This document shows positions 16,905 through 54,295 of a stretch of DNA of 64,000 nt, piece after piece. Every line of letters begins with the position of its first letter. The first letter of the stretch is position 1. Under the pieces are notes generated by a model. The model was not told the DNA's origin. It made no database searches and worked only from the letters and a program-made list of their open reading frames with translations. Source of the stretch: Pseudisothecium myosuroides (Eukaryota; Streptophyta; Bryopsida; Hypnales; Lembophyllaceae); the NCBI GenBank assembly GCA_951799445.1, contig OX637291.1, positions 498,501-562,500 of the forward strand, read 5' to 3'. The translations under genes and the position numbers were made by a program.

Positions 16905-17327
16905 CAAAACTAAACCGGAGTAGAGTGAGAGTACGTGTGAAAGGACCGGATCGGATCGGTCTAGAGGAGTTCCAGGATCAGAAGTGGTAGGATCCTGGGT
17001 TTTGGTAGTTTGACAGGACCGAATAGCTTGACAGGCCGGAAGAAATAGAGAGCGGTCTGGTCGTTGTTTTCGGTGTGTTGTTGTTTCCGGTTTTAGATCT
17101 AGGACCGGAATGTAGAAATTGGATACTAGCTGAGCTTAAGTTGGGAATAGAGCTAGACACTTCACAGAATCTCGTGGGTTCGATCTTTAGAGTCATTTTG
17201 TTATGCTTTAAAGTGGTTTTTGGGAGTATAACAGGGAATTCGCTTACTCTGTGCTGCGACAACGATCAATTGACGTCGTTTTCTGTATGTACATGTCTGC
17301 GTGCTGAGGCTTACTTGGTCTTTGCAG

Positions 17328-29971: not shown

Positions 29972-31239
29972 CTCGCTAGAAGGCCCCACCATTTAGTTTA
30001 CCATGAGATATTTGGTCTTCTTATTCAAAAACTACCCTAAACTAAATTCTAAACTACCCTAAGATATTTCCTAAATAATCTTTGTTTAATCTTTAGAATT
30101 TTCTAGAACAAGCCTTAATTAGCAAGGAAATCTTGTCCAAAATAAAATCTAAGATTTTCCCAAAGATATTTAAGAAATTAACTATTTTGACTTTGAGATA
30201 TTTTGCAAACAACCCTAGGATATTTCCAAATATTCTTAGTTTAATCTAAATTGGCTTTTAAAGGAAAGATTTGAAATCTTAACTAAATCCAATCTTCGAC
30301 TTTCACCAAGATATTTTGTGAAATAACCTTGAATTACCACTAATTACTCTAAAAAAGTCAATCTTACGGCTGAACTCTTCCTATCTTCTTGAGAACAACT
30401 CCAAATTGAAAACCGATTGCGCCTTCGCGTTCAGAAGACCCCGATTAGTTTAGGGGACTTCATTGCCCCCACTTCCAGGCTATAAATACTCGTAAAAACC
30501 ACTAACGATAACTTCAAAGAAAAGTCAAAATCCCAACTAATGGAATTTGAATTTTCCGAGAAAACTGACTGGCTAGGGTTGCCTGGAAGGTTTGTGAGAG
30601 AAAGAAAACATTCCTTGTTTGCGACATTCGGACACCGCCAGCTCCTGGTTCGCCGGTCAACTTGCCGCCATGTTGTAAATTTTTGTTAAATTCGATGTCG
30701 TTGCCGATTTTGGTACTTCTGGCTATCGGAAAGTCTTCAAACTTGATTGGTCGCTTATTTTATATATAAAACTCTCATCTAATTTTTAGTGAGATTTTAC
30801 CGCACTCTGGATAATTTCTAGGAAATTACCATCAGTTTCAAAGGCGGTTGACTTCCCATGGAGTCATCGTGGAGTTTTGTAAAATCCCGAAACTGTTGAG
30901 CATTCTTCTAGGAAGTGTCCAAAAGCTAAGGGCAAAACCAAACTGTGGGAGTACGTATCATCCGGAAAGTCCCAATTAGCAATTTAGTGGAGATAAAAGT
31001 AGCAGAACTTTTTCAATTTTTGCATTTAAATACCAAGTTAGGACTTAGATATTAGAAATAGAAATTAGTTTCTAGGTAGAAAGGATAAAACTCTAAATAG
31101 GTTACGCAGGCTGCCGGAAACCGTAGCCGGAAAGCCGGAAAGTTCCGGAAAGTTCCGGATCGTAGGGACCTACCGCCTAGGTTCCGGCTAGGGAACTTAC
31201 GGGAACGTTTTTGGCGGCGGGAACTTAGGGTTCCGACAG

Positions 31240-31249
31240 GTACTTAAAC
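31240..31249 (+). promoter_or_regulatory. TATA-like element of LTR A/B
   Basis: GTACTTAAAC is conserved in A2 (both LTRs), in A1 (minus strand near 11810) and in family B (50354-50363), always ~150-165 bp before the LORF start. It is the best candidate for the core promoter. No canonical TATAAA is present. Confidence 0.4.
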
Positions 31250-31393
31250 CCCACCGCCAGCCTCATTCAGTCTCTTTTACCCGTGTTCTTCCACGGTGCG
31301 TTAGAAGAGAGAAAGAGTGGTGAGTTAGGGCGTGTTAGGGAGAGAAAGGGAGGAAGGTGCCGATTGCACCGGATTGTCCTAGCAGTCGGTGAG

Positions 31394-33292
31394 ATGGCGG
31401 AAGCGAGTCGATCCCGGAGGTCGGTAGTGACAGCCCGGGGCGTACGTCCGGTTGTCCCATCGGATCCGGAGCGCCTGAAGGAGTTAGAAGAGGACCTAGA
31501 AATCATGGGGTGTTTAGGATTGGTAAAACGTCCATGGAACGTCCGGAGTGAAGAGATGATTGATGAGCTGGTTTCCGGAGTAGGTAATCAGTTCGATTTG
31601 ACGATTAGGGGTCGATCTAGGGCCTGGACTCCGGAGTTGTGGGCGAAGGCATACTTTACGCAGAGCAGGGGTTCCGGAATGGCGTCCCGGACGGATACTT
31701 ACGCCGTGGAGGTATTCCGGAGTCATGCGGATTCCAAGGAGGGAAACACCGCGAGTGATTGTAAGAGTCCACGGGATGGGCAGTTGTTAGCATTCCTCAT
31801 CCCTATTTTGTATCCGGAAAAGCCCACCCGGATTACAATGACCGTGGCAAACACCATTTTCGGAGCGCTGGGAGATAGAGAGAATCCGGCTCCCAGGCCG
31901 GTCAGCTGGGGAGTGATCATTCACTCCGTAGTGGAAAAGTTAGCGGTCAATATCGCGAACAAGAAGTCAAGTCCGATTAGCCCCTATCTTTTCCATCTGT
32001 ATCACTCCGAGGATGCACTGGCCGGACCGGAAATGACCATATACCGGAAGGGCGAGAATTTGTTGAGGTATGGACTTCCCGCCGAAGATGAACCGGATGA
32101 GCTCGAGCCGGAAGAAGAGGAACCAGAACCGGAGCAGGCATCACCAAACGTTGGAGGGACGCGCCGGAAATCGACTGATCGGGGTGCGCGGGGTAAGCAA
32201 GAAGCCGAGGAGGAAGAGAAGCCCCGAGAACCACTTCCGGAAACGGATCAGCTAGAGGCCACCATCAAATGGCTGTTAGCTACCCGGGCACAGAATGAGC
32301 GGATGTCGGCGCTGATCCGGCAAATGTGCGAGAAATTGGGTGTGAAGGAAGAAACCCAAATCCTGGTGGCGTTGGCGGAAAGGCCAGATCCGGAAGCGGT
32401 GAAGCAGCTGGAGGACCGGATTCTGACCTTGGAGCAAGAACGGGACCGGTTTCGAGAACAAGCTGCGTGGTCGGAGAAGGAGAGGATGGCCGCTGAAACA
32501 AAAGAGGGAGAAGCCCTCGATCTGGTCCGGAATGTCAGAAGTCTGTTTGACACTCCGGCGGATATTCTTGCCAGAGCTACACTCTGGAATAATCACATGG
32601 TGAAGGATGGTCACGTGGCGGGATCGAAGGTGGTGAGCATCCTTGTGGATTTTGAAGTCCGGATTGAGGGAATGCTCAAGGAAGTCCGGCAACTGTTGGG
32701 AAACTTGGATCCGCTTGAGGGGTTAGACCAAGGCCTTTTTGACCTAGGTCAGGATCTCCAAGAAGGAGGGGCACAGAACCAGCCTTCTCCGGCAAAGAGC
32801 AAGACAATCGCCGGAACGTCGCAAGCCGGAACAGCATCGGCACAGAAGAGGAGGTCGCTGGTGAAGCAGTTTGCGGCCTCCACTCCAGTAAAAGATGTTG
32901 TCTTAGGCGTCCCAGTCGGAAGAACTGCGTCCGTAGCAAATCTGTTCCCCGACAGACCGGTGGGTTCTACTTTCCGGGAACCAGCTTTACCCGGAACGGT
33001 GTTGAATCCAGCCCGGACGGATCCGGTGAGTTTCACCCACATGCTCCAGCCCTTTCTCCAGACACCGCCACCGTCCCAGCTCATCGATCTTACTGTTCCG
33101 AAACCAAGGGGACGACGGCTACTGAGCGAGACGGACCCGGAATCGGAAGAGGGGGATACGACTCAATCGGAGGAGGAAGACTTGCAGCCTCCCCAAACCA
33201 GGTCGAAGACGAAGAACACCCCACCCCAGAAGACAGGTGGATCGCCAGCTCAGGGTGGCACGTCTATAAAGAAGGCTAAGAGAAATAAATGA
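31394..33292 (+). CDS. LTR-encoded protein LORF-A (5' LTR of A2)
   Basis: A 632-aa protein encoded inside the 5' LTR, identical in sequence to the 3'-LTR copy. The start ATG is at 31394; the upstream GTG frame is not conserved in B and C. The N-terminal domain (~residues 20-200) contains RPWNVRSEEMIDELV, YPEKPTRITMTVANTIFG and SPYLFHLYHSED. An acidic stretch follows at ~215-235, a coiled coil at ~320-390, a conserved block GSKVVSILVDFEVRIEGMLKE at ~420, LIDLT at 563-567 followed by Ser/Glu-rich residues, and the basic tail KKAKRNK. LIDLT plus acidic Ser context resembles a SUMO-interacting motif, and the tail resembles a nuclear signal. It is the first ORF of the presumed genomic RNA. It has no gag or env hallmarks. 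Remote resemblance of the N-terminal domain to the putative plant transposon protein domain is possible but unproven. Confidence 0.85.
   Translation: MAEASRSRRSVVTARGVRPVVPSDPERLKELEEDLEIMGCLGLVKRPWNVRSEEMIDELVSGVGNQFDLTIRGRSRAWTPELWAKAYFTQSRGSGMASRTDTYAVEVFRSHADSKEGNTASDCKSPRDGQLLAFLIPILYPEKPTRITMTVANTIFGALGDRENPAPRPVSWGVIIHSVVEKLAVNIANKKSSPISPYLFHLYHSEDALAGPEMTIYRKGENLLRYGLPAEDEPDELEPEEEEPEPEQASPNVGGTRRKSTDRGARGKQEAEEEEKPREPLPETDQLEATIKWLLATRAQNERMSALIRQMCEKLGVKEETQILVALAERPDPEAVKQLEDRILTLEQERDRFREQAAWSEKERMAAETKEGEALDLVRNVRSLFDTPADILARATLWNNHMVKDGHVAGSKVVSILVDFEVRIEGMLKEVRQLLGNLDPLEGLDQGLFDLGQDLQEGGAQNQPSPAKSKTIAGTSQAGTASAQKRRSLVKQFAASTPVKDVVLGVPVGRTASVANLFPDRPVGSTFREPALPGTVLNPARTDPVSFTHMLQPFLQTPPPSQLIDLTVPKPRGRRLLSETDPESEEGDTTQSEEEDLQPPQTRSKTKNTPPQKTGGSPAQGGTSIKKAKRNK
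33284..33289 (+). terminator. Poly(A) signal candidate overlapping LORF-A stop
   Basis: AATAAA directly precedes and overlaps the TGA of LORF-A; the 3' LTR has the same at 42749-42754. It could end a short LORF-only mRNA in the 5' LTR and the genomic RNA in the 3' LTR. Families B and C lack it at this place. Confidence 0.35.
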
Positions 33293-34141
33293 CTATCTAG
33301 GGTAGCAGTAGCAGTAATTGTAGTTAGGATTCTTACCAGGATGGTAGTTCCGGAACCGGATTTTCCGGATGTAGGCCCAGTAGTTCCGGACTTTTAGGAG
33401 TTAAACGGTTTTGCAGTTTTCCCGGAACGGTCTTCAGGGCCGTTGCCTTTTTGCTTTTTAGTTGGCCGTTGGCCGGTTTTCTGGTGGCCGTTTAGGTTGC
33501 CTTTTTGTGGGTTTTTAAGGGCAGGCCGGTTTGTTGGCCTGTCATTCCTTTTTCCTTGTTCATTTAATCTAAAGCATTCAGGAAAGCACTCGTTGGATTA
33601 TTCTCTTGCGTATCGCGTCTATAGTCACTTGTGTGGATGTGTAAGTGAGAGTGTGCAAGGGGGAGGAGTCCGGATTCGTGGACTGCCGGATTAGGCTAAG
33701 TGTGTCTTGCAGATGAGTTTTTAGACTTGCGCAGTGAGAAAGTGGCGCCTTTAAAACGCTGGTACGGTAATCCGGTGGAGACCAAGGAGTGGTCCGGAAG
33801 CTAGTCCGGAATTCGCAGGGGCGGTTCCGTGCGGAGATAGGCAACCGCCAGAGGAATATTTCCACCCGTCCGGAAGGCTAGTCAACCTCATGAGCGGTCG
33901 AGAGCTAGGAAGTCATTCCCTTAGTTCCGGAAGTCCGGTATCCGTCGTTGTAGTAAGGAGGACCTAACGCTACCCTGTGTGACCAGCTTACCGGATAGGC
34001 CATCCGGAATGTTGTGAGGGGGCCACCCTATTTACTCAACTAGATTTATTCTTGGGTTGTGTTTTGTTTTATGTTATTAGAGTTTATGTCAGATACGGAG
34101 TGGTGCAGTTCCCTACCCCTCGGAAAGAGCAAGTGAGGAAC

Positions 34142-34162
34142 CCTCTGAGGGTAAAACAGAGG
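34142..34162 (+). other. Conserved RNA-hairpin candidate (A2, 5' LTR)
   Basis: Stem CCTCTG/CAGAGG, loop AGGGTAAAA, 282 bp from the LTR start of the tail to PBS side; repeated at 43607-43627 in the 3' LTR. Being upstream of the PBS it would lie in the 5' leader of the genomic RNA, where packaging or translation signals are expected. Confidence 0.55.
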
Positions 34163-34428
34163 TATCGAAAACCAACTTGTTAGAAAGACGGAACCGGAAT
34201 ATTGGATAGGGCCGGATCCGGAAGAGAATCCGGAAAGGAAGTAGTTCCGGAAAAGTGTTTGTGTGTTGAAAGGACCCCTCTCAAGGTGGTCAAAGTCCGG
34301 AAACTTAGAGGTCTCGAGAAACTAATTTTGAAGCAACGTCTGGAATCTCCTGGGACGATAACTTGTGTCATCTTAGCACGTTTTTGTGGTTAAAGATACT
34401 TACACCTAGATTACGCGCACGACACTTT

Positions 34429-34446
34429 TGGTGCCGCTGCCGGGGA
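34429..34446 (+). other. Primer-binding site, tRNA-Asp type
   Basis: TGGTGCCGCTGCCGGGGA lies 4 bp after the 5' LTR. It matches the complement of the plant tRNA-Asp 3' end (TGGCGCCGTTGCCGGGGA, quoted from knowledge) at 16 of 18 positions. The same primer type is used by plant Athila-like elements. Confidence 0.85.
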
Positions 34447-34590
34447 TTCTGATAGATTGTTCTGAAATTAGAAAATTTGCAAAGAGACCTTTAGTCGAAA
34501 AGAACAGGAGTTGATAAACGAGTTAGCAGTGTGGATCCGTATCCCCAAATTGATGAAGTAGATCTTGAAAGAGTACCTACCTCGTACTTC

Positions 34591-36255
34591 ATGAGTAGAC
34601 CTCAGAGAGGAATTCCAGCCGGAAGACGTTCCGGAAGATTAGAAGAGGCTGCTGCTAGAAGACCGGTAGTACCCGGAATCCCTAGTTTTGGTAGAGGTTC
34701 CGAAGCTATTTCAGCATCAGAATCAGAAGAAGATTTGGTACATGTTGCTAGGCGAAATCTTAGTGAAACCCCAAGTCCCACCAATCAGGAACCAGTTACG
34801 AATCCGGATAATATAGAACCGGAACCGGATAGAGAACCCACGCCGGTAGATTCAGAAGAGGAGATATCCTCTGACGAAGCCGAACCGATGGTGACATCCA
34901 CACGCCTAAAATATGGTAAATTTACGGGCGATGGTACTACGGATGTGGATGACTGGATGGGAGAGTTTGAGGCCACCGCCGTAGCCAACCAAGAGGATCC
35001 AGCCTCTAGACAGCGTGTCTTCCAAGGATTACTGAAAGGGGAAGCGTTGAAGTGGTATCAGGATGTTCCGGAAATTATCCGGAATAACTGGGAGGACCTT
35101 ACAGATGCGTTTCTTCGGACATTCCGGGAAGTTGGAGGGGAGGCTAGAGCTCTAGGAAGGTTGAGTAAAATATCAATGCGATCATCTGAATCAGTCAGGA
35201 AGTATGGCCAGAGGGTGAAAGCATTGATGAAGAAACTGACAACGGATGTGTCCCCTAGCATACAAGTAGAGTGGTATGTGGCAGGATTTCCGGAAGAAAT
35301 GGGATTCCAAATCCGGCAGGCTCGACCCGCCACGTTACGAGAAGCTATGGAGACAGCTCAGAATTACGAAAACTCCGCCCAGTCACTAAGAAGATCCATC
35401 AAGAAGAGCGAAAGAAGAGAGAACCGGAGCAAGAAGCATCAGAAGAAGGAGAGAAGGAGACGGAAGTATTCCGATTCGGAATCTCCAAGTTCCGGAACCG
35501 GAACAGAAGCGTCGACCAGCAACACGGAGAGTTCCGGAGCTGAACAAGAAACGTCAAGTAGACGGTCTTCACGAGGTCGGGATGAGAAGATGGACCGCGG
35601 TAAGAGAGTGATCAAAGTCAAGGTGGAAGAAGAGGACTCCAAGAAATTCATGAAGAACCTCCAGGAGACGTTGGACGCCATCAAAGTCAACATCGCGGAA
35701 AACCGGAAGCCAAGACGGATCGTACCAACAACACGGACGAATGTCTGGTGTCCAAGGTGCGGACGACCCGGCCATTTCGCAAGCGAATGTCCTCAAGGAC
35801 CCCAGAAGCAGATCCACTATGTGGATGAGGAGGGAGTTTACTACACCCTACCGGAGGAAGAATACGAGGAGGAAGTCAATCCGGTATTCCAAGTCCAGAC
35901 GGGTTACGGAAGAGGAAGGGCACCTCAGCAACTGATCCGGACCAACGTGTTTCCACGACCCGGAGCAGGCACATCTAGTCCAGGTAACTTCCCACCTTCC
36001 AGGTTTCCTCCCGGAACTTGTTTCATTTGTGGAAGTCCTGAGCATTACGCCAACACTTGTCCTCACAAAGGGCTTGGTCAAGGAGCACCCCTTGTTCTAC
36101 CTTGTCAGAATTGTGGAGAGTACGGGCACGGACTTCGTGATTGCCCTAGCCCGCAGCAGGCTAGAACCATTTACAAACAAGTAGAAGTTCCACCTCGGGA
36201 TCAAACCGGACTCAATTACGGTTCTAAGACCGGAATCGAGAATCCGGATAAATGA
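34591..36255 (+). CDS. gag: Gag polyprotein of A2
   Basis: This frame is open from 34495. The first ATG is 34591 (MSRPQRGIP) and an in-frame GTG at 34531 would add 20 residues. It contains a retrotransposon gag (capsid-like) domain (~residues 105-260: KYGKFTGDGTTDVDDWMGEF, LKGEALKWYQDV, YVAGFPEEM), a long Lys/Arg/Glu/Ser-rich linker, and three CCHC zinc knuckles: CPRCGRPGHFASEC at ~387, CFICGSPEHYANTC at ~477 and CQNCGEYGHGLRDC at ~505. It packages the genomic RNA into virus-like particles in the cytoplasm. It ends at TGA 36253, and pol continues in the same frame. Confidence 0.92.
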   Translation: MSRPQRGIPAGRRSGRLEEAAARRPVVPGIPSFGRGSEAISASESEEDLVHVARRNLSETPSPTNQEPVTNPDNIEPEPDREPTPVDSEEEISSDEAEPMVTSTRLKYGKFTGDGTTDVDDWMGEFEATAVANQEDPASRQRVFQGLLKGEALKWYQDVPEIIRNNWEDLTDAFLRTFREVGGEARALGRLSKISMRSSESVRKYGQRVKALMKKLTTDVSPSIQVEWYVAGFPEEMGFQIRQARPATLREAMETAQNYENSAQSLRRSIKKSERRENRSKKHQKKERRRRKYSDSESPSSGTGTEASTSNTESSGAEQETSSRRSSRGRDEKMDRGKRVIKVKVEEEDSKKFMKNLQETLDAIKVNIAENRKPRRIVPTTRTNVWCPRCGRPGHFASECPQGPQKQIHYVDEEGVYYTLPEEEYEEEVNPVFQVQTGYGRGRAPQQLIRTNVFPRPGAGTSSPGNFPPSRFPPGTCFICGSPEHYANTCPHKGLGQGAPLVLPCQNCGEYGHGLRDCPSPQQARTIYKQVEVPPRDQTGLNYGSKTGIENPDK

Positions 36256-36258
36256 CAA
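36253..36258 (+). promoter_or_regulatory. In-frame TGA between gag and pol (readthrough candidate)
   Basis: TGA followed by CAA is the only stop in a 1956-codon frame from 34531 to 40398. Pol has no ATG close after it (its next codons are CAA CCA AGG GTG). Pol is therefore most simply made by stop-codon readthrough as a Gag-Pol fusion. Confidence 0.55.
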
Positions 36259-39200
36259 CCAAGGGTGGAACTTCCGGAGAAACAAGTAGAAGTAGTTCAT
36301 AGAGTAGAGACCCGGAGTTCCACCAAGAACCGGGATGAAAAGCGTAGGAAAAGAGAGAAGAAACGGAAAGAAGAATCCGGATTAGGTACTCTGCACGAGG
36401 TACCGGATTCGAGTGATTCTGATCGCTCAGTAGTTCAGCCAGTACTACACCCAGTAGTAGAATTAGAAAAAGGGGTGGCTCGCCGCCCCCTTTCTATCGA
36501 TATTAGTGATCAAATCAGGACGAGTCTAAGAGATTCCGTAGTAATCCCGGAAATTATTCCGAGAAAAGTCACATTTGATGAGGTTCCGGTTGTGATCAAT
36601 CCGGAACTCAAGGTGGACGAGTATGATATCCTGCAAGATATCAAAGATCAGAAGGCCAATGTCACCATTGGGCAGCTTCTGCACGACAACGCCAATTACC
36701 AGAAGATGATCCGGGAGGCCTGGACCAAGAAACGGAGAAGAAGACTAAAGTTACCTTCGGTTGCTGTCAACTTTTCCCAAGTGGAGGATTACGGAGCACC
36801 TGAATTGGAAGTTGAAGTAGGAGGATGCATGATACCTGCAGTACCGGTCGATGGAGGATCCGGAGTCAACTTGATGTTGGAAGAAACAGCATTTGACCTT
36901 GGATATACGTCCTTCCAAGCCACCGACCAAGTACTCCGGATGGCGGATCAGTCTCGTGTGCATCCGGTAGGAAGGCTATCACAAGTTCCTACCCGGATAG
37001 GTACGGTTACCTACCTCCTAAACTATGTGATTATTCGGGTCAATCAGGGAAAACCCTTCCCCATGTTGCTTGGAAGACCATGGCTGTATGCAGCCAGAGT
37101 CTTAGCAGATTGGGGAGCCAAGGAATTTGTGATTGGGAAACCAGCAATCCGGATTCCCTGGAAACGCGTGGAGCATCTTGGAGAGACCAGCGAGTCAGAT
37201 GGATACACCACGGATTGGTCGGATCCGGAAGATTCAGATTCAGTCCCCAGCTATTTTACGTCGGCTACGGAAACTGATTTTGAGTTTCCGGAACCGATGG
37301 TAGAAATCGGAGCAGAGGAGCCGATTGATGAAGGGAACATTGTTCCACAAGAAGATCGATCCATGGGAGAAGTGGATGTGCCACTTTCCTTTGGATGGAT
37401 CAGACAGCAGATCATGGACGGTAGCATTCCGTCCATTGGTTTAAACGGACAGGATCCGGAAATCCCATGGAGTGACATTCAGGAGGGAGCAGAAGAGGCT
37501 ACGCCGAAAAGAATCAAGACTGTCGTAAGTCCTTCGGATTATGACAAGATCGAAGTTGTTTCCGGAAAGTCCTTCTTTCTCAGCAACTCCATGACGGAAT
37601 CGGAAAAGAAGGAGTACACTACCCTTCTTAAAGATTATATGGATGTGTTCGCCTGGGTAGCATCCGACTTAACGGGCATTCCGGCGGAACTAGAAGAGCA
37701 CCGGATCGACCTCACGGAAGGGGCAGTTCCGATTCGACAGCGCCAATACCGGCTAAATCCCAGATACTCAATCATGGTGAAAGAGGAGATTGACGCCTTG
37801 TTGGAGGCCGGATTCATATATCCAGTCCACAACTCGGAATGGGTTTCCCCAATCGTGGTCGTACCAAAGAAGGCCGGACCGGAAGGGAAGGTCAAGATCC
37901 GGGTATGTCAGGATTTCCGGAAGTTGAATACAGCTACCCGGAAAGACTACTTTCCTCTACCTTTTACTGATATTATCTTAGATCATGTTTCCGGAAACGA
38001 GTGCTATAGTTTCCTGGACGGATTCTCAGGGTATAATCAAGTCTTCATCCGGTTGATAGATCAACTAAAAACTACCTTTACGACAGAATGGGGAACTTTT
38101 GCTTTCACCCGGATGCCATTTGGGTTATGCAATGCTCCGGGAACGTTTCAGCGACTCATGATGGATATTTTTCGGGACTTCCTTAGGTACTTCTTGGAAG
38201 TATTCATCGATGATTTTGCAGTATTCTCGTCCCGGAAGGATCATCTTGAGTACTTACGAAAGACATTTCAAAGATGTAGAGAGACTAACCTCAAACTACA
38301 TCCGGGAAAATGCTTTTTCGGTATGCAATCCGGAATTTTGCTCGGACACGTAGTAAGCTGGAAAGGCTTAGAGGTCGACATAGATAAAGTAAAAGCTATG
38401 ATCGCCTTAGCCCCTCCAACCTGTGTACGGGAGATCCGTGGTTTTCTTGGATGCGTGGGGTACTATCGACGTTTTATTGAAGGATACGCCCGGAAGGCAA
38501 TCCCTTTGACGGAACTGTTGAAAAAGGATACGGATTTTACTTGGAATCCGGAAAGGCAGCAAGCGTTCGAAAGCTTGAAGGCAGCTTTGGTAAAAGCTCC
38601 AATTTTGTCTTCACCGGATTGGTGCAAGGATTTTCATGTAACCTTGGACGCTTCCGGATGGTGCCTAGGGGCCATTCTTTGGCAATATGACGAAAACCAA
38701 CGGGAGTGCCCATTGTACTATTCAAGCCGGCAAATGAGTTTGGCGGAACGGAAGTACACCACCACTGAAAGGGAAGCCTTGGCAGTGATTTATGCTTGCA
38801 AGAAATTCCGGCATTACTTGCTCGGATACCGGATCGTATTCCACACGGATCACGACTCTCTGAAGCACCTGGTAAACAAACCGGATCTTTCCGGACGAAT
38901 CGCAAGATGGGTACTGTTGCTCCAGGAGTTCAATTACGAGGTATTAGTCAAATCCGGAAAGTCCAATGCGAATGCTGACTTCTTGTCAAGACAAAGAGGA
39001 ACTAGTGCACTGGGAGATATTTCCGCCGATTTCCCGGATGAGTTTCCGGAAAAGGAGGAGGAAATGGTCTTCCATTTAGAAGAGGGAGACTCTTCAGACT
39101 TTCGGGATATCATTACGTATCTAACAGAACAACGATATCCGGAGGGGCTGAATCGAGAAGAGAAGAGCGTCTTCCAGAAAAAGGTGGCTCCTTACTCATT

Positions 39201-40398
39201 GATTAAGGGAACCTTGTTCAAAATGGGGGCAGATGACCAACTCCGAAGGTGCTTAGAGGCCAAGGAACGGAAGAAGGTGATGAGAGCCTTACATTCCGGA
39301 CTATCTGGAGGTCATTTCGCCACCATGACTACGGTAAACAGAATCCGGAACGCCGGATACTGGTGGCCGTATTTGATACGCGATGTCAAAGCGTATGTTG
39401 GGAGTTGTGACCAATGTCAACGGACGGGAGCACCCTCCTTCCGGAACCATTGGCCACTAACTCCTATCATTCCGTTAGCTCCATTTGAGAAATGGGGGAT
39501 TGACTTTATAGGTCCCATTTCTCCGGTGAGCGCCAGGAAGAAGAGATACATAATCCTAGCCACGGATTATGCCTCTAAATGGGTAGAAGCTCGTCTGACC
39601 CGGCATAATTCTGCCAAAACGGCCGCTTCTTTCCTATTTACGGAAATCATGATGCGATTTGGGCATCCGTTGGAGTTGGTCAGTGACAGGGGACTGCATT
39701 TCCTCAATGACGTCATCCAAGACATTACGGACCGGTACCTGATCAAGCACCGGAAGACCACACCTTACAATCCTAGGGCGAACGGATTGACGGAACGGGC
39801 CAACGGCATTGTGGAAAAAGCTTTACACAAAACGATTTCTGAAAACAAGACGGATTGGGACTTGAAGCTCCCATCAGCCGTCCATGCCTATAATACGTCA
39901 GACAAAAGCACAACCGGAAGGAGTCCCTTCTTCCTAGTGTTTGGACAGACGGCTGTTCATGGCATCGAGATGGAAGTCGAAACACACCGGATCATGGCAT
40001 CCCGGACTGCAATCCGGAACTGCGATCCGGAAATTCGACTGATGGCTATCGAAGATCTGGAGGAAGCTCGTGAAGTAGCGCTGGAGAAAAATAAGGAGGT
40101 GCAAGCCAAGAGAAAGGAAGACCATGACCGGAAACTCCCAAAGGAACACGGAGTCAAGGTGGGTGGCCTGGTTTTACTCTACGACAGTCGCTACCGGAAT
40201 TTTCCGGGTAAGTTTCATACCAGATGGATGGGGCCGTATAGGGTAGAATCTATCTACTCAAACGGATCCTTACAGTTGACGGATCTGCAAGGCGTATGGT
40301 TTGACACAAGGGTTAATAAAAACCGGGTCAAGAAGTACGAAGCAGATCCGGATTCGGAAGAAGAGGACGATGATGTTCGCGAGGACGCTCACATTTGA
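36256..40398 (+). CDS. pol: Pol polyprotein of A2 (PR-RT-RNaseH-IN)
   Basis: About 1380 codons in frame with gag, uninterrupted. With residue 1 at 36265: aspartic protease with an unusual active site VDGGSGVNLM (~195) and LGRPWLYAARVLADWG; reverse transcriptase (~490-720) with FRKLNTATRKDYFPLPF, SFLDGFSGYNQV, MPFGLCNAPGTFQ and catalytic FIDD (~647-650); RNase H (~790-915) with TLDASG, TEREALA, HTDHDSL and NADFLSR; and integrase with an HHCC zinc-binding region (~1010-1055) and a D,D(35)E core at about D1080, D1140 and E1176. The C-terminus ends in an acidic tail (DPDSEEEDDDVRED) with no chromodomain seen. All catalytic residues are present, so the element looks autonomous. Confidence 0.95.
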   Translation, partial: QPRVELPEKQVEVVHRVETRSSTKNRDEKRRKREKKRKEESGLGTLHEVPDSSDSDRSVVQPVLHPVVELEKGVARRPLSIDISDQIRTSLRDSVVIPEIIPRKVTFDEVPVVINPELKVDEYDILQDIKDQKANVTIGQLLHDNANYQKMIREAWTKKRRRRLKLPSVAVNFSQVEDYGAPELEVEVGGCMIPAVPVDGGSGVNLMLEETAFDLGYTSFQATDQVLRMADQSRVHPVGRLSQVPTRIGTVTYLLNYVIIRVNQGKPFPMLLGRPWLYAARVLADWGAKEFVIGKPAIRIPWKRVEHLGETSESDGYTTDWSDPEDSDSVPSYFTSATETDFEFPEPMVEIGAEEPIDEGNIVPQEDRSMGEVDVPLSFGWIRQQIMDGSIPSIGLNGQDPEIPWSDIQEGAEEATPKRIKTVVSPSDYDKIEVVSGKSFFLSNSMTESEKKEYTTLLKDYMDVFAWVASDLTGIPAELEEHRIDLTEGAVPIRQRQYRLNPRYSIMVKEEIDALLEAGFIYPVHNSEWVSPIVVVPKKAGPEGKVKIRVCQDFRKLNTATRKDYFPLPFTDIILDHVSGNECYSFLDGFSGYNQVFIRLIDQLKTTFTTEWGTFAFTRMPFGLCNAPGTFQRLMMDIFRDFLRYFLEVFIDDFAVFSSRKDHLEYLRKTFQRCRETNLKLHPGKCFFGMQSGILLGHVVSWKGLEVDIDKVKAMIALAPPTCVREIRGFLGCVGYYRRFIEGYARKAIPLTELLKKDTDFTWNPERQQAFESLKAALVKAPILSSPDWCKDFHVTLDASGWCLGAILWQYDENQRECPLYYSSRQMSLAERKYTTTEREALAVIYACKKFRHYLLGYRIVFHTDHDSLKHLVNKPDLSGRIARWVLLLQEFNYEVLVKSGKSNANADFLSRQRGTSALGDISADFPDEFPEKEEEMVFHLEEGDSSDFRDIITYLTEQRYPEGLNREEKSVFQKKVAPYSLIKGTLFKMGADDQLRRCLEAKERKKVMRALHSGLSGGHFATMTTVNRIRNAGYWWPYLIRDVKAYVGSCDQCQRTGAPSFRNHWPLTPIIPLAPFEKWGIDFIGPISPVSARKKRYIILATDYASKWVEARLTRHNSAKTAASFLFTEIMMRFGHPLELVSDRGLHFLNDVIQDITDRYLIKHRKTTPYNPRANGLTERANGIVEKALHKTISENKTDWDLKLPSAVHAYNTSDKSTTGRSPFFLVFGQTAVHGIEMEVETHRIMASRTAIRNCDPEIRLMAIEDLEEAREVALEKNKEVQAKRKEDHDRKLPKEHGVKVGGLVLLYDSRYRNFPGKFHTRWMGPYRVESIYSNGSLQLTDLQGVWFDTRVNKNRVKKYEADPDSEEEDDDVREDAHI

Positions 40399-40409
40399 AA
40401 ATGGGGTAA
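40397..40409 (+). other. Polypurine tract
   Basis: GAAAATGGGGTAA abuts the 3' LTR and overlaps the end of pol. It is the expected plus-strand primer, interrupted by single T residues. Confidence 0.6.
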
Positions 40410-43400
40410 TGTGGGAGTACGTATCATCCGGAAAGTCCCAATTAGCAATTTAGTGGAGATAAAAGTAGCAGAACTTTTTCAATTTTTGCATTTAAATACC
40501 AAGTTAGGACTTAGATATTAGAAATAGAAATTAGTTTCTAGGTAGAAAGGATAAACTCTAAATAGGTTACGCAGGCTGCCGGAAACCGTAGCCGGAAAGC
40601 CGGAAAGTTCCGGAAAGTTCCGGATCGTAGGGACCTACCGCCTAGGTTCCGGCTAGGGAACTTACGGGAACGTTTTTGGCGGCGGGAACTTAGGGTTCCG
40701 ACAGGTACTTAAACCCCACCGCCAGCCTCATTCAGTCTCTTTTACCCGTGTTCTTCCACGGTGCGTTAGAAGAGAGAAAGAGTGGTGAGTTAGGGCGTGT
40801 TAGGGAGAGAAAGGGAGGAAGGTGCCGATTGCACCGGATTGTCCTAGCAGTCGGTGAGATGGCGGAAGCGAGTCGATCCCGGAGGTCGGTAGTGACAGCC
40901 CGGGGCGTACGTCCGGTTGTCCCATCGGATCCGGAGCGCCTGAAGGAGTTAGAAGAGGACCTAGAAATCATGGGGTGTTTAGGATTGGTAAAACGTCCAT
41001 GGAACGTCCGGAGTGAAGAGATGATTGATGAGCTGGTTTCCGGAGTAGGTAATCAGTTCGATTTGACGATTAGGGGTCGATCTAGGGCCTGGACTCCGGA
41101 GTTGTGGGCGAAGGCATACTTTACGCAGAGCAGGGGTTCCGGAATGGCGTCCCGGACGGATACTTACGCCGTGGAGGTATTCCGGAGTCATGCGGATTCC
41201 AAGGAGGGAAACACCGCGAGTGATTGTAAGAGTCCACGGGATGGGCAGTTGTTAGCATTCCTCATCCCTATTTTGTATCCGGAAAAGCCCACCCGGATTA
41301 CAATGACCGTGGCAAACACCATTTTCGGAGCGCTGGGAGATAGAGAGAATCCGGCTCCCAGGCCGGTCAGCTGGGGAGTGATCATTCACTCCGTAGTGGA
41401 AAAGTTAGCGGTCAATATCGCGAACAAGAAGTCAAGTCCGATTAGCCCCTATCTTTTCCATCTATATCACTCCGAGGATGCACTGGCCGGACCGGAAATG
41501 ACCATATACCGGAAGGGCGAGAATTTGTTGAGGTATGGACTTCCCGCCGAAGATGAACCGGATGAGCTCGAGCCGGAAGAAGAGGAACCAGAACCGGAGC
41601 AGGCATCACCAAACGTTGGAGGGACGCGCCGGAAATCGACTGATCGGGGTGCGCGGGGTAAGCAAGAAGCCGAGGAGGAAGAGAAGCCCCGAGAACCACT
41701 TCCGGAAACGGATCAGCTAGAGGCCACCATCAAATGGCTGTTAGCTACCCGGGCACAGAATGAGCGGATGTCGGCGCTGATCCGGCAAATGTGCGAGAAA
41801 TTGGGTGTGAAGGAAGAAACCCAAATCCTGGTGGCGTTGGCGGAAAGGCCAGATCCGGAAGCGGTGAAGCAGCTGGAGGACCGGATTCTGACCTTGGAGC
41901 AAGAACGGGACCGGTTTCGAGAACAAGCTGCGTGGTCGGAGAAGGAGAGGATGGCCGCTGAAACAAAAGAGGGAGAAGCCCTCGATCTGGTCCGGAATGT
42001 CAGAAGTCTGTTTGACACTCCGGCGGATATTCTTGCCAGAGCTACACTCTGGAATAATCACATGGTGAAGGATGGTCACGTGGCGGGATCGAAGGTGGTG
42101 AGCATCCTTGTGGATTTTGAAGTCCGGATTGAGGGAATGCTCAAGGAAGTCCGGCAACTGTTGGGAAACTTGGATCCGCTTGAGGGGTTAGACCAAGGCC
42201 TTTTTGACCTAGGTCAGGATCTCCAAGAAGGAGGGGCACAGAACCAGCCTTCTCCGGCAAAGAGCAAGACAATCGCCGGAACGTCGCAAGCCGGAACAGC
42301 ATCGGCACAGAAGAGGAGGTCGCTGGTGAAGCAGTTTGCGGCCTCCACTCCAGTAAAAGATGTTGTCTTAGGCGTCCCAGTCGGAAGAACTGCGTCCGTA
42401 GCAAATCTGTTCCCCGACAGACCGGTGGGTTCTACTTTCCGGGAACCAGCTTTACCCGGAACGGTGTTGAATCCAGCCCGGACGGATCCGGTGAGTTTCA
42501 CCCACATGCTCCAGCCCTTTCTCCAGACACCGCCACCGTCCCAGCTCATCGATCTTACTGTTCCGAAACCAAGGGGACGACGGCTACTGAGCGAGACGGA
42601 CCCGGAATCGGAAGAGGGGGATACGACTCAATCGGAGGAGGAAGACTTGCAGCCTCCCCAAACCAGGTCGAAGACGAAGAACACCCCACCCCAGAAGACA
42701 GGTGGATCGCCAGCTCAGGGTGGCACGTCTATAAAGAAGGCTAAGAGAAATAAATGACTATCTAGGGTAGCAGTAGCAGTAATTGTAGTTAGGATTCTTA
42801 CCAGGATGGTAGTTCCGGAACCGGATTTTCCGGATGTAGGCCCAGTAGTTCCGGACTTTTAGGAGTTAAACGGTTTTGCAGTTTTCCCGGAACGGTCTTC
42901 AGGGCCGTTGCCTTTTTGCTTTTTAGTTGGCCGTTGGCCGGTTTTCTGGTGGCCGTTTAGGTTGCCTTTTTGTGGGTTTTTAAGGGCAGGCCGGTTTGTT
43001 GGCCTGTCATTCCTTTTTCCTTGTTCATTTAATCTAAAGCATTCAGGAAAGCACTCGTTGGATTATTCTCTTGCGTATCGCGTCTATAGTCACTTGTGTG
43101 GATGTGTAAGTGAGAGTGTGCAAGGGGGAGGAGTCCGGATTCGTGGACTGCCGGATTAGGCTAAGTGTGTCTTGCAGATGAGTTTTTAGACTTGCGCAGT
43201 GAGAAAGTGGCGCCTTTAAAACGCTGGTACGGTAATCCGGTGGAGACCAAGGAGTGGTCCGGAAGCTAGTCCGGAATTCGCAGGGGCGGTTCCGTGCGGA
43301 GATAGGCAACCGCCAGAGGAATATTTCCACCCGTCCGGAAGGCTAGTCAACCTCATGAGCGGTCGAGAGCTAGGAAGTCATTCCCTTAGTTCCGGAAGTC

Positions 43401-43889
43401 CGGTATCCGTCGTTGTAGTAAGGAGGACCTAACGCTACCCTGTGTGACCAGCTTACCGGATAGGCCATCCGGAATGTTGTGAGGGGGCCACCCTATTTAC
43501 TCAACTAGATTTATTCTTGGGTTGTGTTTTGTTTTATGTTATTAGAGTTTATGTCAGATACGGAGTGGTGCAGTTCCCTACCCCTCGGAAAGAGCAAGTG
43601 AGGAACCCTCTGAGGGTAAAACAGAGGTATCGAAAACCAACTTGTTAGAAAGACGGAACCGGAATATTGGATAGGGCCGGATCCGGAAGAGAATCCGGAA
43701 AGGAAGTAGTTCCGGAAAAGTGTTTGTGTGTTGAAAGGACCCCTCTCAAGGTGGTCAAAGTCCGGAAACTTAGAGGTCTCGAGAAACTAATTTTGAAGCA
43801 ACGTCTGGAATCTCCTGGGACGATAACTTGTGTCATCTTAGCACGTTTTTGTGGTTAAAGATACTTACACCTAGATTACGCGCACGACA
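40410..43889 (+). repeat. 3' LTR of A2
   Basis: 3480 bp, the same as the 5' LTR except for a one-base deletion in the A-run near 40555 and a synonymous change near 41465. The end GCGCACGACA is followed by the target duplication CAAAC. Confidence 0.97.
40859..42757 (+). CDS. LTR-encoded protein LORF-A (3' LTR of A2)
   Basis: Intact 632-codon duplicate of the 5'-LTR ORF with an identical protein. It is a by-product of LTR duplication, but it would also be transcribed from the 3' LTR promoter into flanking D2 DNA. Confidence 0.85.
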   Translation: MAEASRSRRSVVTARGVRPVVPSDPERLKELEEDLEIMGCLGLVKRPWNVRSEEMIDELVSGVGNQFDLTIRGRSRAWTPELWAKAYFTQSRGSGMASRTDTYAVEVFRSHADSKEGNTASDCKSPRDGQLLAFLIPILYPEKPTRITMTVANTIFGALGDRENPAPRPVSWGVIIHSVVEKLAVNIANKKSSPISPYLFHLYHSEDALAGPEMTIYRKGENLLRYGLPAEDEPDELEPEEEEPEPEQASPNVGGTRRKSTDRGARGKQEAEEEEKPREPLPETDQLEATIKWLLATRAQNERMSALIRQMCEKLGVKEETQILVALAERPDPEAVKQLEDRILTLEQERDRFREQAAWSEKERMAAETKEGEALDLVRNVRSLFDTPADILARATLWNNHMVKDGHVAGSKVVSILVDFEVRIEGMLKEVRQLLGNLDPLEGLDQGLFDLGQDLQEGGAQNQPSPAKSKTIAGTSQAGTASAQKRRSLVKQFAASTPVKDVVLGVPVGRTASVANLFPDRPVGSTFREPALPGTVLNPARTDPVSFTHMLQPFLQTPPPSQLIDLTVPKPRGRRLLSETDPESEEGDTTQSEEEDLQPPQTRSKTKNTPPQKTGGSPAQGGTSIKKAKRNK

Positions 43890-49193: not shown

Positions 49194-50516
49194 AAGCCGC
49201 CACACCGTGAGGGTGATGGGTGGAAGTACCCCTGGCGGGAAGGTACAATTGGAGTTCAAATTATCCAGTTGCGTACAATTTGTCTCCATTCAAACAAAGA
49301 TTCTCATTTGCAATAGACTTGAGGCATACATTTGAGCACAGTTGAGAGCCTCGATGGAGAATTGTCAACCTCGTGCCCAGGTGTGTGCAGTCACCTTGCA
49401 CACTACACACAATGACAACGGTGAGTGGATTTCTACTCGATATGAAAGATTGTCATGGGTGAGGCTTAATCCAGAAAGGGTCGGCAGTTGGGCTAGAGAG
49501 TCTGAGCTCCCAAGTTGTCACTTAGGACTCATAGATTTTCTTTTGTTTTAAACCGCAATTTAGAATAGATAAAACTATACAAAAAGCCATAAAAAGAGTG
49601 TATAACCAAAATAGGGTTGTAACATGCCCATTATAGTATTTGGTCTAGATTTGATTGTATACGTAGAACTCCCCCAAAACTAGTTTGGCATTAGCTAGAA
49701 AACATCATAATTTGCAGGTTGAGTCACGCGGCCTCTTAAGGACTGATTCCCCTATGAATGTGGCAACTCATGGCTAGATCGGTCCAAGGGATCCCCAGCG
49801 AGGCCAATAGGTCGGATCTTAGAGTTAGGTTTCGAATTCCCCATTAGATTTTTGAATTGGTAGAAACCCCAATTGTTAGTCTGCAAGTGCCACAACCAAA
49901 GATGGGAGGCCAGGGAGGAATCTACGGGCCAACGAAGGGGTCCAAAATAACTCCCCGGCCAGGAGTTCAAATGCGAATACAATTCGCCAAGATTTTCTCA
50001 CCATCGAAAAATTCCCTATTTCACCAACGGCTCTAAAGGAGGAGCTGTGGGAGCACGGAAACTTAGAATAAAGGAAGAGAGCATAGAAATAGGTTAGGAG
50101 TTAGTTAAAAATTTCAAAACTTTGGTAAGAAGTAGGAAATTAGATTCGGATACAGATATATTCCGGATAGTTAGAATCCGAGATTGCAGATCCTGTAAAC
50201 CGGGTTTTTCCGAGAACAGGAACGGATCTTAAATCCGAGTTAGGTCGGATCGGAACGAGCTACGGAATAGGTATCCGACCTACGCCGCTAGGGAATCGTT
50301 ACGGGAACGGACCTCTTTCCGTTCGCCAAGGGGAACGGTCGGCAGCTCGACTAGTACTTAAACTCTCGTCAGACCTAATCTTCCTCATTCTTCACTTTGC
50401 TGATTGTCTTGCGCACTTAGCTGAGAGAAAGAGTGGTGAGTTAGAGATCGCGACAGGGACAGACGGGTGAGGTCGGTGCCGATTGCACCGGATTTAGTAG
50501 TCCGTGTCGGTAAACT

Positions 50517-52418: not shown

Positions 52419-53258
52419 TTAGTATGTTTGCAGTTTTAGGATTTTTAATTTGGAGCGGATTTTCCGTGCGTGGGGCCCGGTTCCGGATTCTTAGGAGTAG
52501 TTGACTTTGAACTTTCCGGATATTACGGTTGGTTACTGATTGGTCACCTGGATTTTCAGGTGTTCTTTTTTTGGCTTTTTGTTTGGGTTTTTAAGTGGAG
52601 GGCAGCTTGTTGCCCTTTCATTCCAGCCTTGCCCATTTTGTGTGCATTAGTTTGTGTGCATATTCTCTTTTCTCTAATCTGAGCCACTAAGTGGACATTC
52701 GGATTTCTGGCTATGTGTGCGTTTTCTTGAGTTGTTTATGAATGGTGAAAGTGTGAGAGAGGGCGGGTGAGGGGGAATCCGGGTTGAAAATTAGTTGGAC
52801 CTGTTTTGAGCGAGTAAGTTTGTGAGGAAACTTTACTAGACTTGTGAGTAAGGACTTGTGCGTGGTACCTTTAAATTGCCGTAACGGTGATCCGGTTCTA
52901 AGGAGTGGTGCGGATGCGAGTCCGGAATCCAGGGAGGGTTCCGAGCGGAGATAAGCGACCGCCAGCGGAAAATCCCCACTCACCGGAAGGTCTGCCAACC
53001 ATAGGAATAGTCTGGTAGATGGATGCACGAATCTCTTCCAGTTCCGGCTGTCTTGATCTGTCGTTGTAGTAAAAGTGGAAGGATGCAATTCTGAGTGACC
53101 TGTTTTCCGGGCAAGCTACTCGGGGAATTGTGAGGATTGTTACTTTCTCTACTCTGCAATAAAAACTCGGTTAGGATTGTTTTGTGTGAAGTTTTGCGCA
53201 GAGAAATAGATGCCTATGAGTGGTGCGTTCCTACCCCTCTAAAGATCAAATGCAGACA

Positions 53259-53279
53259 CCCCTGAGGGTAAAACAGGGG
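53259..53279 (+). other. Conserved RNA-hairpin candidate (B2)
   Basis: Stem CCCCTG/CAGGGG with loop AGGGTAAAA. Compared with families A and C the third pair is C-G instead of T-A, keeping the stem intact. Confidence 0.55.
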
Positions 53280-54295
53280 AATAGAAAACCAGTTGAAGTT
53301 GAGAAGTGAGACCCGGAATCCGGATCATACCGGAAACAGGGAAGAGATAGATCCGGATTGGGATCCGGAAAACCATTGTGTAAGAAATAGGAAAAGAAAG
53401 AGGGGTTTGCTTGGGTTTTTGGTTGTTTTGATTAAGACTCGGATACTTCTTAGCTTGCTGAAACATACTAGAATCTCCTGGGACGATATTTCGTGTTATC
53501 TTACCATCATTTTGGTGTTAAGGATACTTACGCCTAGATTGCGCGTACGACAGGAGCCATTTGCGACCTTCACCGACTGAGCGTGTCAGGTGCTAACCGG
53601 GCCTGCATGCATTCCATGTGGCGCCATGAGAAGTCACGTGAGATTTTCCGACATTCTCTGACTTACAGAAGAACCTTCCACGGGCGGTCAACCGTACCTA
53701 ACCTCCAATGGGAATTTCTTGGAAATTTCTCGGGGTATGCTAAATTCTCACTAAAAATTGTATTAGCTTGGTTTATGCTAATAATGCACTCCACCAAGTT
53801 TTGCAACATTCCGATAGCGGCAAGTACCAGAACTGGCCAGATTCCTCGAAATTTACATATGTATCGGAATTACCGGTACCTTGACCGGCGCTCCGGGAGC
53901 GTCCGACAGCGAAATGAAGTCACTAAGGAGTCTTTTCCTACTCCCTTGCACCTACCGGGGACCACAGGCTAGTTACCTTTCTCAAATTAGGAAACCTCCA
54001 AGTTTTGAAAATTTACTCCAACTTGGTTTTTAATCTACGGTAGCTTCTGTTGGGGTTTTGGTATTGATATAGGGAATATAGGGCTTTTGGACTAAAAATG
54101 GTGTTCTAGAGCCAACGGCGCAATCCGTTTGGCATTTGAAGTTGAACTCCAAAAGTTAGGATGTTGGTCTAGCGTAGGGTAAAAAGTTAGTTTTGTAGGA
54201 GTAGGATGAAAATCTTGGAAGATAAGGATGAAAATCCAAGTCGATAAGATTACTATTAGGTCTTTAGAAGGGGAGGGGGTGAGCCCTTGAAAACC

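What the first reader, a model, noticed from the sequence alone, without database searches (positions are those of the whole stretch)
30944..43889. LTRs that encode a long protein, in three diverged retroelement families
LTRs are normally non-coding. Here every A, B and C LTR with enough sequence in view carries a ~590-633 codon ORF (LORF) at the same relative place, with matching domain order but strong divergence between families. Intact frames survive in A1, both LTRs of A2, B2 and C1; B0 is open as far as seen; only B1 is broken. A conserved protein inside a regulatory repeat means each solo LTR remains a promoter-plus-gene unit after gag-pol is lost. LTR-coded genes are known (for example sag of MMTV), but I know of none with this architecture in plant Ty3/gypsy elements.
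Basis: partly seen in the sequence, partly recalled or inferred. Interest (0 to 1): 0.92.

Follow-up and report, generated by a model that had tools for sequence, protein, structure and literature searches.

The report
Moss retrotransposons with protein-coding LTRs
In what appears to be a moss, three related families of jumping genes carry a large protein gene inside the repeat at each of their ends, usually thought to hold only control signals, so even the repeat left behind when the rest is lost can keep a gene that evolution has preserved.

Summary
The A, B and C LTRs (3.48-3.51 kb) each carry a frame of 632, 633 and 589 codons; none of 300 shuffles per LTR reaches the open stretch. They are true LTRs: A2 is a complete Ty3/gypsy element; 14 LORF-A pairs about 9.46 kb apart each enclose a pol match; 28 of 50 B loci examined are solo LTRs with perfect target duplications. 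LORF is under purifying selection (B family, internal branches, omega 0.26; window copies N 33, S 34 against about 2.6:1), yet its A-B dN is four times that of pol. 97 relatives are in public protein data. The helical N-domain, followed by coiled-coil-like helices, has no PDB match; it may be a remote relative of Transposase_32, a domain reported in an Athila extra ORF. New here: the palindrome TCCGGA is scattered 61 times through the A element, in coding frames beyond codon usage. Best reading, partly inferred: an accessory gene captured into the LTR, with its own promoter, acting on the family's DNA, perhaps against silencing. No RNA or binding data were available. The moss host is inferred from psaB. 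The papers searched showed no such plant LTR gene.

The parts
30944..34424 (+). A2 5' LTR (3481 bp)
   Evidence: 99.94% identical to 40410-43889; TG..CA ends, target duplication CAAAC outside the element
31394..33292 (+). LORF-A in the 5' LTR, 632 codons
34591..36255 (+). gag: Retrotrans_gag and CCHC knuckles (three stretches)
36265..40398 (+). pol: RT, RNase H, integrase H2C2 and rve; no chromodomain hit, no protease model hit
40398..40409 (+). purine-rich tract before the 3' LTR
   Evidence: read; the same end precedes the three A 3' LTRs among 8 A loci examined
40410..43889 (+). A2 3' LTR (3480 bp)
40859..42757 (+). LORF-A in the 3' LTR; the ORF read from the first GTG differs by one base from the 5' copy
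8634..12107 (-). A1 solo LTR, duplication TTGGT, inserted in B1; LORF intact at 9767-11665
6135..8633 (+). B1 solo LTR, first part (continues 12113-13118); LORF 6606-8507 with one in-frame TAG
12113..13118 (+). B1 solo LTR, second part; duplication ATCAT
50046..53552 (+). B2 solo LTR, duplication GGAGC
50517..52418 (+). LORF-B, 633 codons
1..1038 (-). B0 LTR, cut by the window edge; 189 LORF codons open
13776..17261 (+). C1 solo LTR, duplication ACGAT
14291..16060 (+). LORF-C, 589 codons
31241..31247 (+). TATA-like box P1 in A (B: 50355, C: 14079), 153, 162 and 212 bases before the LORF start
   Evidence: TACTTA at LTR position 298 (A), 310 (B), 304 (C); picked by eye; the word also occurs elsewhere in the A and B LTRs, and C has a TATATA at 14008
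50376..50450 (+). most constrained non-coding stretch of the B LTR, between P1 and the LORF start
   Evidence: 8-11 changes per 30 bases against 29 expected, 47 copies
33750..33756 (+). TATA-like box P2 in A (B: 52870, C: 16525), downstream of LORF, at the start of the conserved 3' block
   Evidence: TTTAAA 675 (A) and 683 (B) bases, CCTTAAA 737 (C) bases from the LTR end; B window 52869-52898 has 12 changes against 29 expected; picked by eye, other T/A-rich boxes exist (A and B TTTTTAAG, C TATATA at 16227)
33944..33955 (+). 12-mer GTCGTTGTAGTA, same in A, B and C LTRs
   Evidence: 7 occurrences in the window on both strands, all in LTR 3' parts
34426..34445 (+). primer-binding-site region (tRNA-Asp-like by recall)
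   Evidence: like sequence after B and C 5' LTRs

Best explanation
LORF is a genuine accessory gene of a Ty3/gypsy lineage that lies inside the LTR, most likely in U3 as sag does in MMTV. SHOWN: a coding frame in true LTRs of three families; purifying selection; faster amino-acid divergence than pol; many solo LTRs that keep the gene; a TATA-like box and constrained leader before LORF; a second TATA-like box after it; a short palindromic motif scattered through the A element. INFERRED: (1) the protein descends from a Transposase_32-type ORF that sits between pol and the 3' LTR in Athila elements, and came into the LTR when the plus-strand priming site moved upstream of it, so that reverse transcription copied it into both LTRs; (2) P1 drives a LORF mRNA from full elements and solo LTRs alike, and P2 drives the gag-pol genomic RNA with a leader of about 650 bases; (3) LORF is a nuclear coiled-coil protein that acts in trans on the family's own DNA through the dispersed CCGG-core motif, keeping it expressible against host silencing. 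Separately: genuine selected gene 0.95; LTR location 0.98; U3 rather than R/U5 0.6; Transposase_32 ancestry 0.45 (lowered from 0.5 on checking, because the best shuffled control comes close); motif-directed anti-silencing 0.25.
For: Open frame against shuffles. 14 LORF-A pairs about 9.46 kb apart, each with a pol match between; C LORFs lie in six same-strand groups at 9.2-9.4 kb, and one C element shows PBS-like and purine-tract junctions. 28 of 50 B loci and 3 of 8 A loci are solo LTRs with 5/5 duplications. Selection: B internal branches N 151, S 269, omega 0.26 (0.20-0.34); terminal 0.52 (0.45-0.60); 5 against 44 new stops; window copies N 33, S 34, p 1e-4. Speed: LORF A-B dN 0.57, pol A-B dN 0.14. 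Relatives: 97 distinct protein ids. Fold: N-domain pLDDT 88, pTM 0.87, long helices after it. Transposase_32: its model finds three loci of another family in this genome, under its cut-off; of five proteins of that family scanned, L062 gives E 2.4e-5, L065 2e-5, L067 0.015, L066 0.035, L064 none; that family aligns colinearly with the LORF N-domain, E 0.001-0.0065. The domain is reported in a sunflower Athila 3' extra ORF (PMC11728184, passages). Motif. Boxes and constraint.
Against: No RNA, protein or methylation data. The B copies were picked by protein score, which favours low N. Between families dS is saturated or undefined; for pairs with C the middle and C-terminal parts have dN above 1 (1.01-1.33), so no useful ratio. 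The Transposase_32 link rests on weak values: hhalign probabilities 0.9-20%; in the shuffle control the real score is 25.0 and the best of 100 shuffles 24.1 (mean 13.9); LORF A, B and C show no PF20167 match at E 10. The TATA-like boxes were picked by eye. The strongest non-coding constraint lies before LORF, which also fits a main start there with LORF in R/U5. Motif retention is only suggestive: internal branches 2 of 606 against 132 of 7720 (p 0.004), but the internal-to-terminal contrast is not significant (p 0.14), and terminal branches show a weaker deficit too (p 0.01). TCCGGA excess is weak in LORF-B (5 against 1.7, 9 of 300 shuffles reach it) and absent in LORF-C (3 against 2.2, 120 of 300). 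The motif is oriented (CCGGAA 66, TTCCGG 33), which also fits an RNA-level role.
Confidence: 0.4

Rival explanations
1. LORF lies in R/U5: the main promoter is P1, LORF is the first gene of the genomic RNA, and a GTGAGT splice-donor-like site in its leader lets gag-pol be expressed by splicing LORF out.
For: The strongest non-coding constraint is the 75-base leader after P1; a 22-base leader block with GTGAGT is identical in A and B.
Against: A second TATA-like box at the start of the conserved 3' block; no clear acceptor before gag seen by eye, no splice-site scoring done; the block is not clear in C.
Confidence: 0.3
2. LORF is a structural or RNA-binding helper of replication (an extra Gag-like or packaging protein), and the CCGG-core motif acts in RNA.
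For: Motif is oriented, CCGGAA 66 against TTCCGG 33, and lies in coding RNA as well; coiled-coil-like helices and basic tail.
Against: No Gag or zinc-knuckle match in LORF A, B or C; solo LTRs keep the gene although they cannot make particles; the TCCGGA core is palindromic.
Confidence: 0.25
3. The protein is a captured or domesticated host gene under host selection.
For: Purifying selection; a dispersed family of perhaps related proteins elsewhere in the genome.
Against: The matches scored in the three LORF searches (66, 70 and 74, capped lists) are dispersed copies 91-100% alike; new stops fall mainly on terminal branches.
Confidence: 0.05
4. The open frame is a by-product of composition or very recent insertion, without function.
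For: The A copies scored are young (98-100% alike).
Against: 0 of 300 shuffles per LTR; codon-position pattern and omega; 97 relatives.
Confidence: 0.02

Closest known systems
MMTV sag (and nef at the 3' LTR of HIV): LTR-coded accessory genes of retroviruses
   Same: An accessory gene between the purine tract and R, so present in both LTRs (recall; MMTV papers seen in a search listing only).
   Different: No sequence relation found; animal retroviruses; here the LTR gene is about twice as long (recall for sag), occurs in three diverged families of a plant, and is often kept in solo LTRs.
Athila 3' additional ORF with Transposase_32 (PF20167)
   Same: Ty3/gypsy without chromodomain hit; extra ORF next to the 3' end of pol; Transposase_32-like N-domain (tentative); basic stretches.
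   Different: In Athila the ORF lies in the internal region (PMC11728184 passages; PMC7264820, part 1 of 3); here it is inside the LTR; LORF itself gives no PF20167 match.
Retrosat2/RIRE3 ORF0 elements of rice
   Same: LTRs over 3.2 kb and a fast-evolving extra ORF of unknown function (PMC3485330 passages).
   Different: ORF0 lies upstream of the gag-pol ORF, not within the LTR as described there; chromovirus lineage (recall).
VANDAL VANC anti-silencing proteins
   Same: Fast-evolving accessory protein beside a more conserved transposition enzyme; short family-specific DNA motif accumulated in the element (PMC5735166 passages).
   Different: DNA transposon; DUF1985, no such hit in LORF; VANC motifs sit in non-coding tandem repeats, while TCCGGA is dispersed and also in coding sequence; binding not shown here.

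Membership tests
Ty3/gypsy LTR retrotransposon | Two LTRs, 5-bp target duplication, PBS and purine tract | tested here: met
   PBS identity to a tRNA is recall
Ty3/gypsy LTR retrotransposon | gag with knuckles; pol order RT-RNase H-integrase | tested here: met
   protease gave no Pfam hit
Athila/Tat (OTA) or Phygy/Selgy lineage | Placement in an RT/RH/INT tree | not tested
   No reference set was at hand; only the absence of a chromodomain hit was seen; Athila-like RT is recall
LTR-coded accessory gene (sag-like) | Gene wholly inside the LTR | tested here: met
LTR-coded accessory gene (sag-like) | Gene lies in U3, expressed from its own or a spliced mRNA | not testable with these tools
   Only TATA-like boxes and constraint; no RNA
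Transposase_32 (PF20167) family | Match above Pfam's gathering score | tested here: not met
   no PF20167 match for LORF A, B or C at E 10; the bridging L062 protein is also below it (24.7 against 45 bits)
Transposase_32 (PF20167) family | Remote homology by profile comparison | tested here: inconclusive
   E 0.001-0.0065, hhalign probability 6-20%; real score 25.0, best of 100 column shuffles 24.1
Athila 3' additional ORF | ORF in the internal region between pol and the 3' LTR | tested here: not met
   LORF starts 450-515 bases inside the LTR
VANC anti-silencing system | DUF1985 domain | tested here: not met
   no DUF1985 match for LORF A, B or C at E 10
VANC anti-silencing system | Short DNA motif accumulated in the element | tested here: met
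   TCCGGA in A; related CCGG-core words in non-coding parts of B and C
VANC anti-silencing system | Motif concentrated in non-coding tandem repeats | tested here: not met
   dispersed in coding and non-coding sequence
VANC anti-silencing system | Protein binds the motif and lowers methylation | not testable with these tools
   needs binding and methylome data
Known protein fold in the PDB | Significant structural match of the N-domain | tested here: inconclusive

The most novel reading that the evidence does not exclude
An LTR-coded, self-recognising regulator: each LTR, solo LTRs included, is a complete gene for a protein that binds a CCGG-core motif which the element has spread through its whole sequence, coding frames included. 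The old solo LTRs would then act as a genome-wide reservoir of trans-acting helper genes that keep the remaining full elements from being silenced, with LORF and motif co-diverging between families (TCCGGA in A; more ATCCGG and ACCGGA in C).
Probability: 0.2. Interest if true: 0.93.

Novelty: new variant of a known kind. Interest (0 to 1): 0.76.

Why it matters
LTRs are usually treated as non-coding in annotation, so a conserved LTR gene would be masked or filed as a repeat. It changes what a solo LTR is: not only a leftover promoter but a possible gene source, kept in dozens of copies. It offers a plant counterpart to sag/nef-type LTR genes and, if the motif reading holds, a testable retroelement counter-silencing system.

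Tried and rejected
Chance open frame: rejected. Pfam, PDB-sequence and PDB/BFVD fold searches with LORF gave only coiled-coil or chance matches; the N-domain model alone was not run against BFVD. No relative was found in IMG/VR or prokaryote contigs by a pattern scan. The homologue search with L062 found nothing at E 0.001. YN00 dN/dS failed numerically on all 12 rows; NG86 dS is saturated or undefined between families, so family-level ratios are weak evidence. No paper in the searches made was found to describe a plant LTR-coded protein, but I saw listings and starts of abstracts, passages of PMC6317226, PMC7466625, PMC3485330, PMC5735166 and PMC11728184, the abstract and outline of PMC10398659, and part 1 of 3 of PMC7264820.

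A mistaken B0 start, one base late, was used (one codon set aside as a gap, 188 compared) and found. One search stopped with an error after its motif counts; its dN/dS part was redone.

Rows dropped: 3 of 50 B loci lacked a full LTR and were left out of the tree (47 used); gap codons and stop codons were skipped in pairwise counts. Of 66 A, 70 B and 74 C scored copies, LTR DNA was examined for 8 A (the best 8) and 50 B (the best 30 and 20 of the next 23); for C only two short junction pieces. Two B loci (L020, L034) share their flanks and are a duplicated segment, both counted.
Full report
THE THING. A2 is a complete element: LTRs 30944-34424 and 40410-43889, 99.94% identical, duplication CAAAC, a primer-site region after the 5' LTR and a purine tract before the 3' LTR, gag with CCHC knuckles and pol with RT, RNase H and integrase. 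A1, B1, B2 and C1 are solo LTRs with perfect 5-bp duplications. Each of the three families carries LORF: 632 (A), 633 (B) and 589 (C) codons. Over each LTR the longest open stretch (687, 634, 619 codons) is above all 300 dinucleotide shuffles (highest 374). The LORFs of the two A2 LTRs, read from the first GTG, differ by one base.

NOT A LOCAL ODDITY. tblastn in the host genome scored 66 LORF-A, 70 LORF-B and 74 LORF-C copies; the lists are capped, so these are lower bounds. By my count of the rows 57 of 66, 25 of 70 and 55 of 74 have no stop. In the A list 14 same-strand pairs lie about 9.46 kb apart, and each of the 14 encloses a pol match. C shows six same-strand groups at 9.2-9.4 kb, one a triple. 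Of 58 loci examined (8 A, 50 B), A gave 3 solo LTRs with 5/5 duplications, 2 5' LTRs and 3 3' LTRs; B gave 28 solo 5/5 (two of them one duplicated segment), 8 solo 4/5, 3 5' LTRs, 8 without duplication (one of these, L042, followed by the internal-start bases CTTTT) and 3 incomplete. One C element shows a PBS-like and a purine-tract junction, and its internal 3' end resembles that of A. The pol of one B element is 78% identical to A's. So LORF stands in the LTR in all three families.

SELECTION. Between families NG86 dS is saturated or undefined; A-B dN is 0.57 overall and 0.40 in the N-domain. In pairs with C the middle and C-terminal parts have dN above 1 and mostly no dS, so they say nothing. 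On a tree of 47 B LTRs, changes on internal branches give N 151 and S 269 (287.2 N expected from the mutation spectrum), omega 0.26 (0.20-0.34) with 5 new stops; terminal branches give N 605 and S 653, omega 0.52 (0.45-0.60), with 44 stops (N:S contrast p 1.6e-5, stops p 0.012). These copies were chosen by protein score, which biases omega down. Three copies found in the window by DNA (B1, B0, A1) pool to N 33 and S 34 against about 2.6:1 expected, p 1e-4; this has no protein-score bias but is small and pools unlike pairs (B1 22:26, B0 6:4, A1 5:4). LORF thus evolves under constraint, but its A-B dN is four times that of pol (0.57 against 0.14).

THE PROTEIN. Two searches of 5.8 billion proteins list 25 and 77 relatives, 97 distinct ids, from metagenome and ENA contigs without named hosts; only the 7995 candidates sharing most words were scored each time. 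Whether they too lie in LTRs is not known. AlphaFold2 gives a confident helical N-domain (pLDDT 88, pTM 0.87), long coiled-coil-like helices at about residues 286-435 and long disordered parts; many members end in a basic tail. There is no Pfam match of note and no PDB fold match. The PF20167 (Transposase_32) model marks three loci of a different dispersed protein family in this genome, below its cut-off. Of five proteins of that family scanned, L062 gives E 2.4e-5, L065 2e-5, L067 0.015, L066 0.035 and L064 no match. That family's profile aligns colinearly with the LORF N-domain: E 0.0011, probability 20%; E 0.0065, probability 6%, score 25.0 against a mean of 13.9 and a best of 24.1 in 100 column shuffles; with L062 and L061 alone E 0.022 and 0.059. 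I call this tentative homology. A sunflower study reports partial similarity of an Athila 3' extra ORF to Transposase_32, related to Athila ORF1 (PMC11728184, passages).

CIS SIGNALS. A TATA-like TACTTA stands at LTR positions 298, 310 and 304 in A, B and C; a second TATA-like box (TTTAAA, TTTAAA, CCTTAAA) 675, 683 and 737 bases before the LTR end. Both were picked by eye, and other such words exist in the LTRs (for instance TATATA in C at 14008 and 16227). In the B family the lowest non-coding change counts fall between the first box and the LORF start (8-11 changes per 30 bases against 29), with further low windows, among others just after the LORF stop and at the second box. A 12-mer GTCGTTGTAGTA occurs seven times in the window, all in LTR 3' parts; it looks like the start of plant tRNA-Asp (recall).

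A NEW OBSERVATION. The palindrome TCCGGA occurs 16 times in the non-coding parts of the A LTR against 0.6 in dinucleotide shuffles, and 0.12 per kb in the rest of the window. Over the A element (one LTR plus internal, 9.47 kb) there are 61, with 21.5 expected from a second-order Markov model. In coding sequence it exceeds every one of 300 synonymous-codon shuffles in LORF-A (11 against 2.3), gag (9 against 1.5) and pol (25 against 6.4), in all three phases. In LORF-B the excess is weak (5 against 1.7; 9 of 300 reach it) and in LORF-C absent (3 against 2.2), where ATCCGG and ACCGGA are in excess. B has 18 in 6.0 kb of internal DNA (Markov-2 expectation 9.6) and a mean of 11.9 per LTR over 47 copies; 78 kb of flanks of 55 LTR loci have 0.86 per kb, B LTRs 3.42. 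In non-coding C the enriched words are ATCCGG (12 against 0.7) and ACCGGA (13 against 0.8, both strands). On internal branches of the B tree CpGs in TCCGGA are lost less often (2 of 606) than other CpGs (132 of 7720, p 0.004), but terminal branches show a weaker deficit too (29 of 609 against 596 of 7918, p 0.01) and the internal-terminal contrast is not significant (p 0.14).

HOW IT MAY WORK. The order of parts suggests a U3-located gene with its own promoter, and a second promoter for the genomic RNA. A natural origin is an Athila-type ORF between pol and the 3' LTR, taken into the LTR when plus-strand priming began upstream of it. A fast-evolving, probably nuclear protein coded beside a motif spread through the element recalls the VANC system of VANDAL transposons, where a fast-evolving protein binds a short accumulated motif and removes methylation (PMC5735166, passages). 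The likeness is of logic, not of membership: no DUF1985, and the motif is dispersed, not in tandem repeats. All steps from transcript to effect are inferred.

HOST. A 299-residue plastid psaB piece (contig C222) matches PDB entries 7ksq, 6l35 and 8htu best (691.5 bits; next 682.7, then 669.5; 60 of 174 matches shown). These are Physcomitrium photosystem I entries by recall, so the host is most likely a moss. The contig lengths seen imply that contigs C1 to C11 hold nearly all of the 388 Mb, which would fit n = 11; the length of C4 was not seen. Species not determined.

LITERATURE. Vicient and Casacuberta (part 1 of 3) and REXdb (passages) speak of extra ORFs of the internal region in what I saw. 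No search listing named a plant LTR-coded protein (calls listed under Tried and rejected). Absence from this open-access library is weak evidence.

Noticed in passing
30944-40409 and B, C LTRs: TCCGGA and related CCGG-core words are strongly over-represented, in A through coding and non-coding parts.
   Followed up: partly
33944, 43409, 53060, 16689, 12627, 1638, 9103 (minus): A 12-mer GTCGTTGTAGTA, like the 5' end of plant tRNA-Asp (recall), occurs seven times in the window, all in LTR 3' parts.
   Followed up: no
34143-34162, 53260-53279, 16885-16904: A hairpin-like block (CTCTGAGGGTAAAACAGAGG and variants) is conserved in all three families.
   Followed up: no
50423-50444 and 31307-31328: A 22-base leader block with GTGAGT, splice-donor-like, is identical in A and B.
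   Followed up: no
contig C11 of G000: 19 of 70 scored LORF-B matches lie on the 16.9-Mb contig C11 (p 1e-10), perhaps a heterochromatic or sex chromosome.
   Followed up: no
one search list: Stops inside LORF-B copies are mostly TAG, as expected from CAG decay at methylated CHG sites (inference).
   Followed up: no
L061, L062 and one search list: A second dispersed protein family with Transposase_32-like N-domains, including 975-codon open frames at several sites.
   Followed up: partly
G000:C5:4259969-4280469: Three LORF-C copies spaced 9367 bases each: looks like a tandem LTR-internal-LTR-internal-LTR array.
   Followed up: no
1039-2117: 3' end of a further A-like LTR, 94% identical, next to B0.
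   Followed up: no
21289-23274: Two adjacent ORFs with DUF7869, probably another transposon gene.
   Followed up: no
4978-5676: NLI-interacting-factor-like phosphatase domain ORF beside a long ORF without Pfam match, 3176-4981.
   Followed up: no
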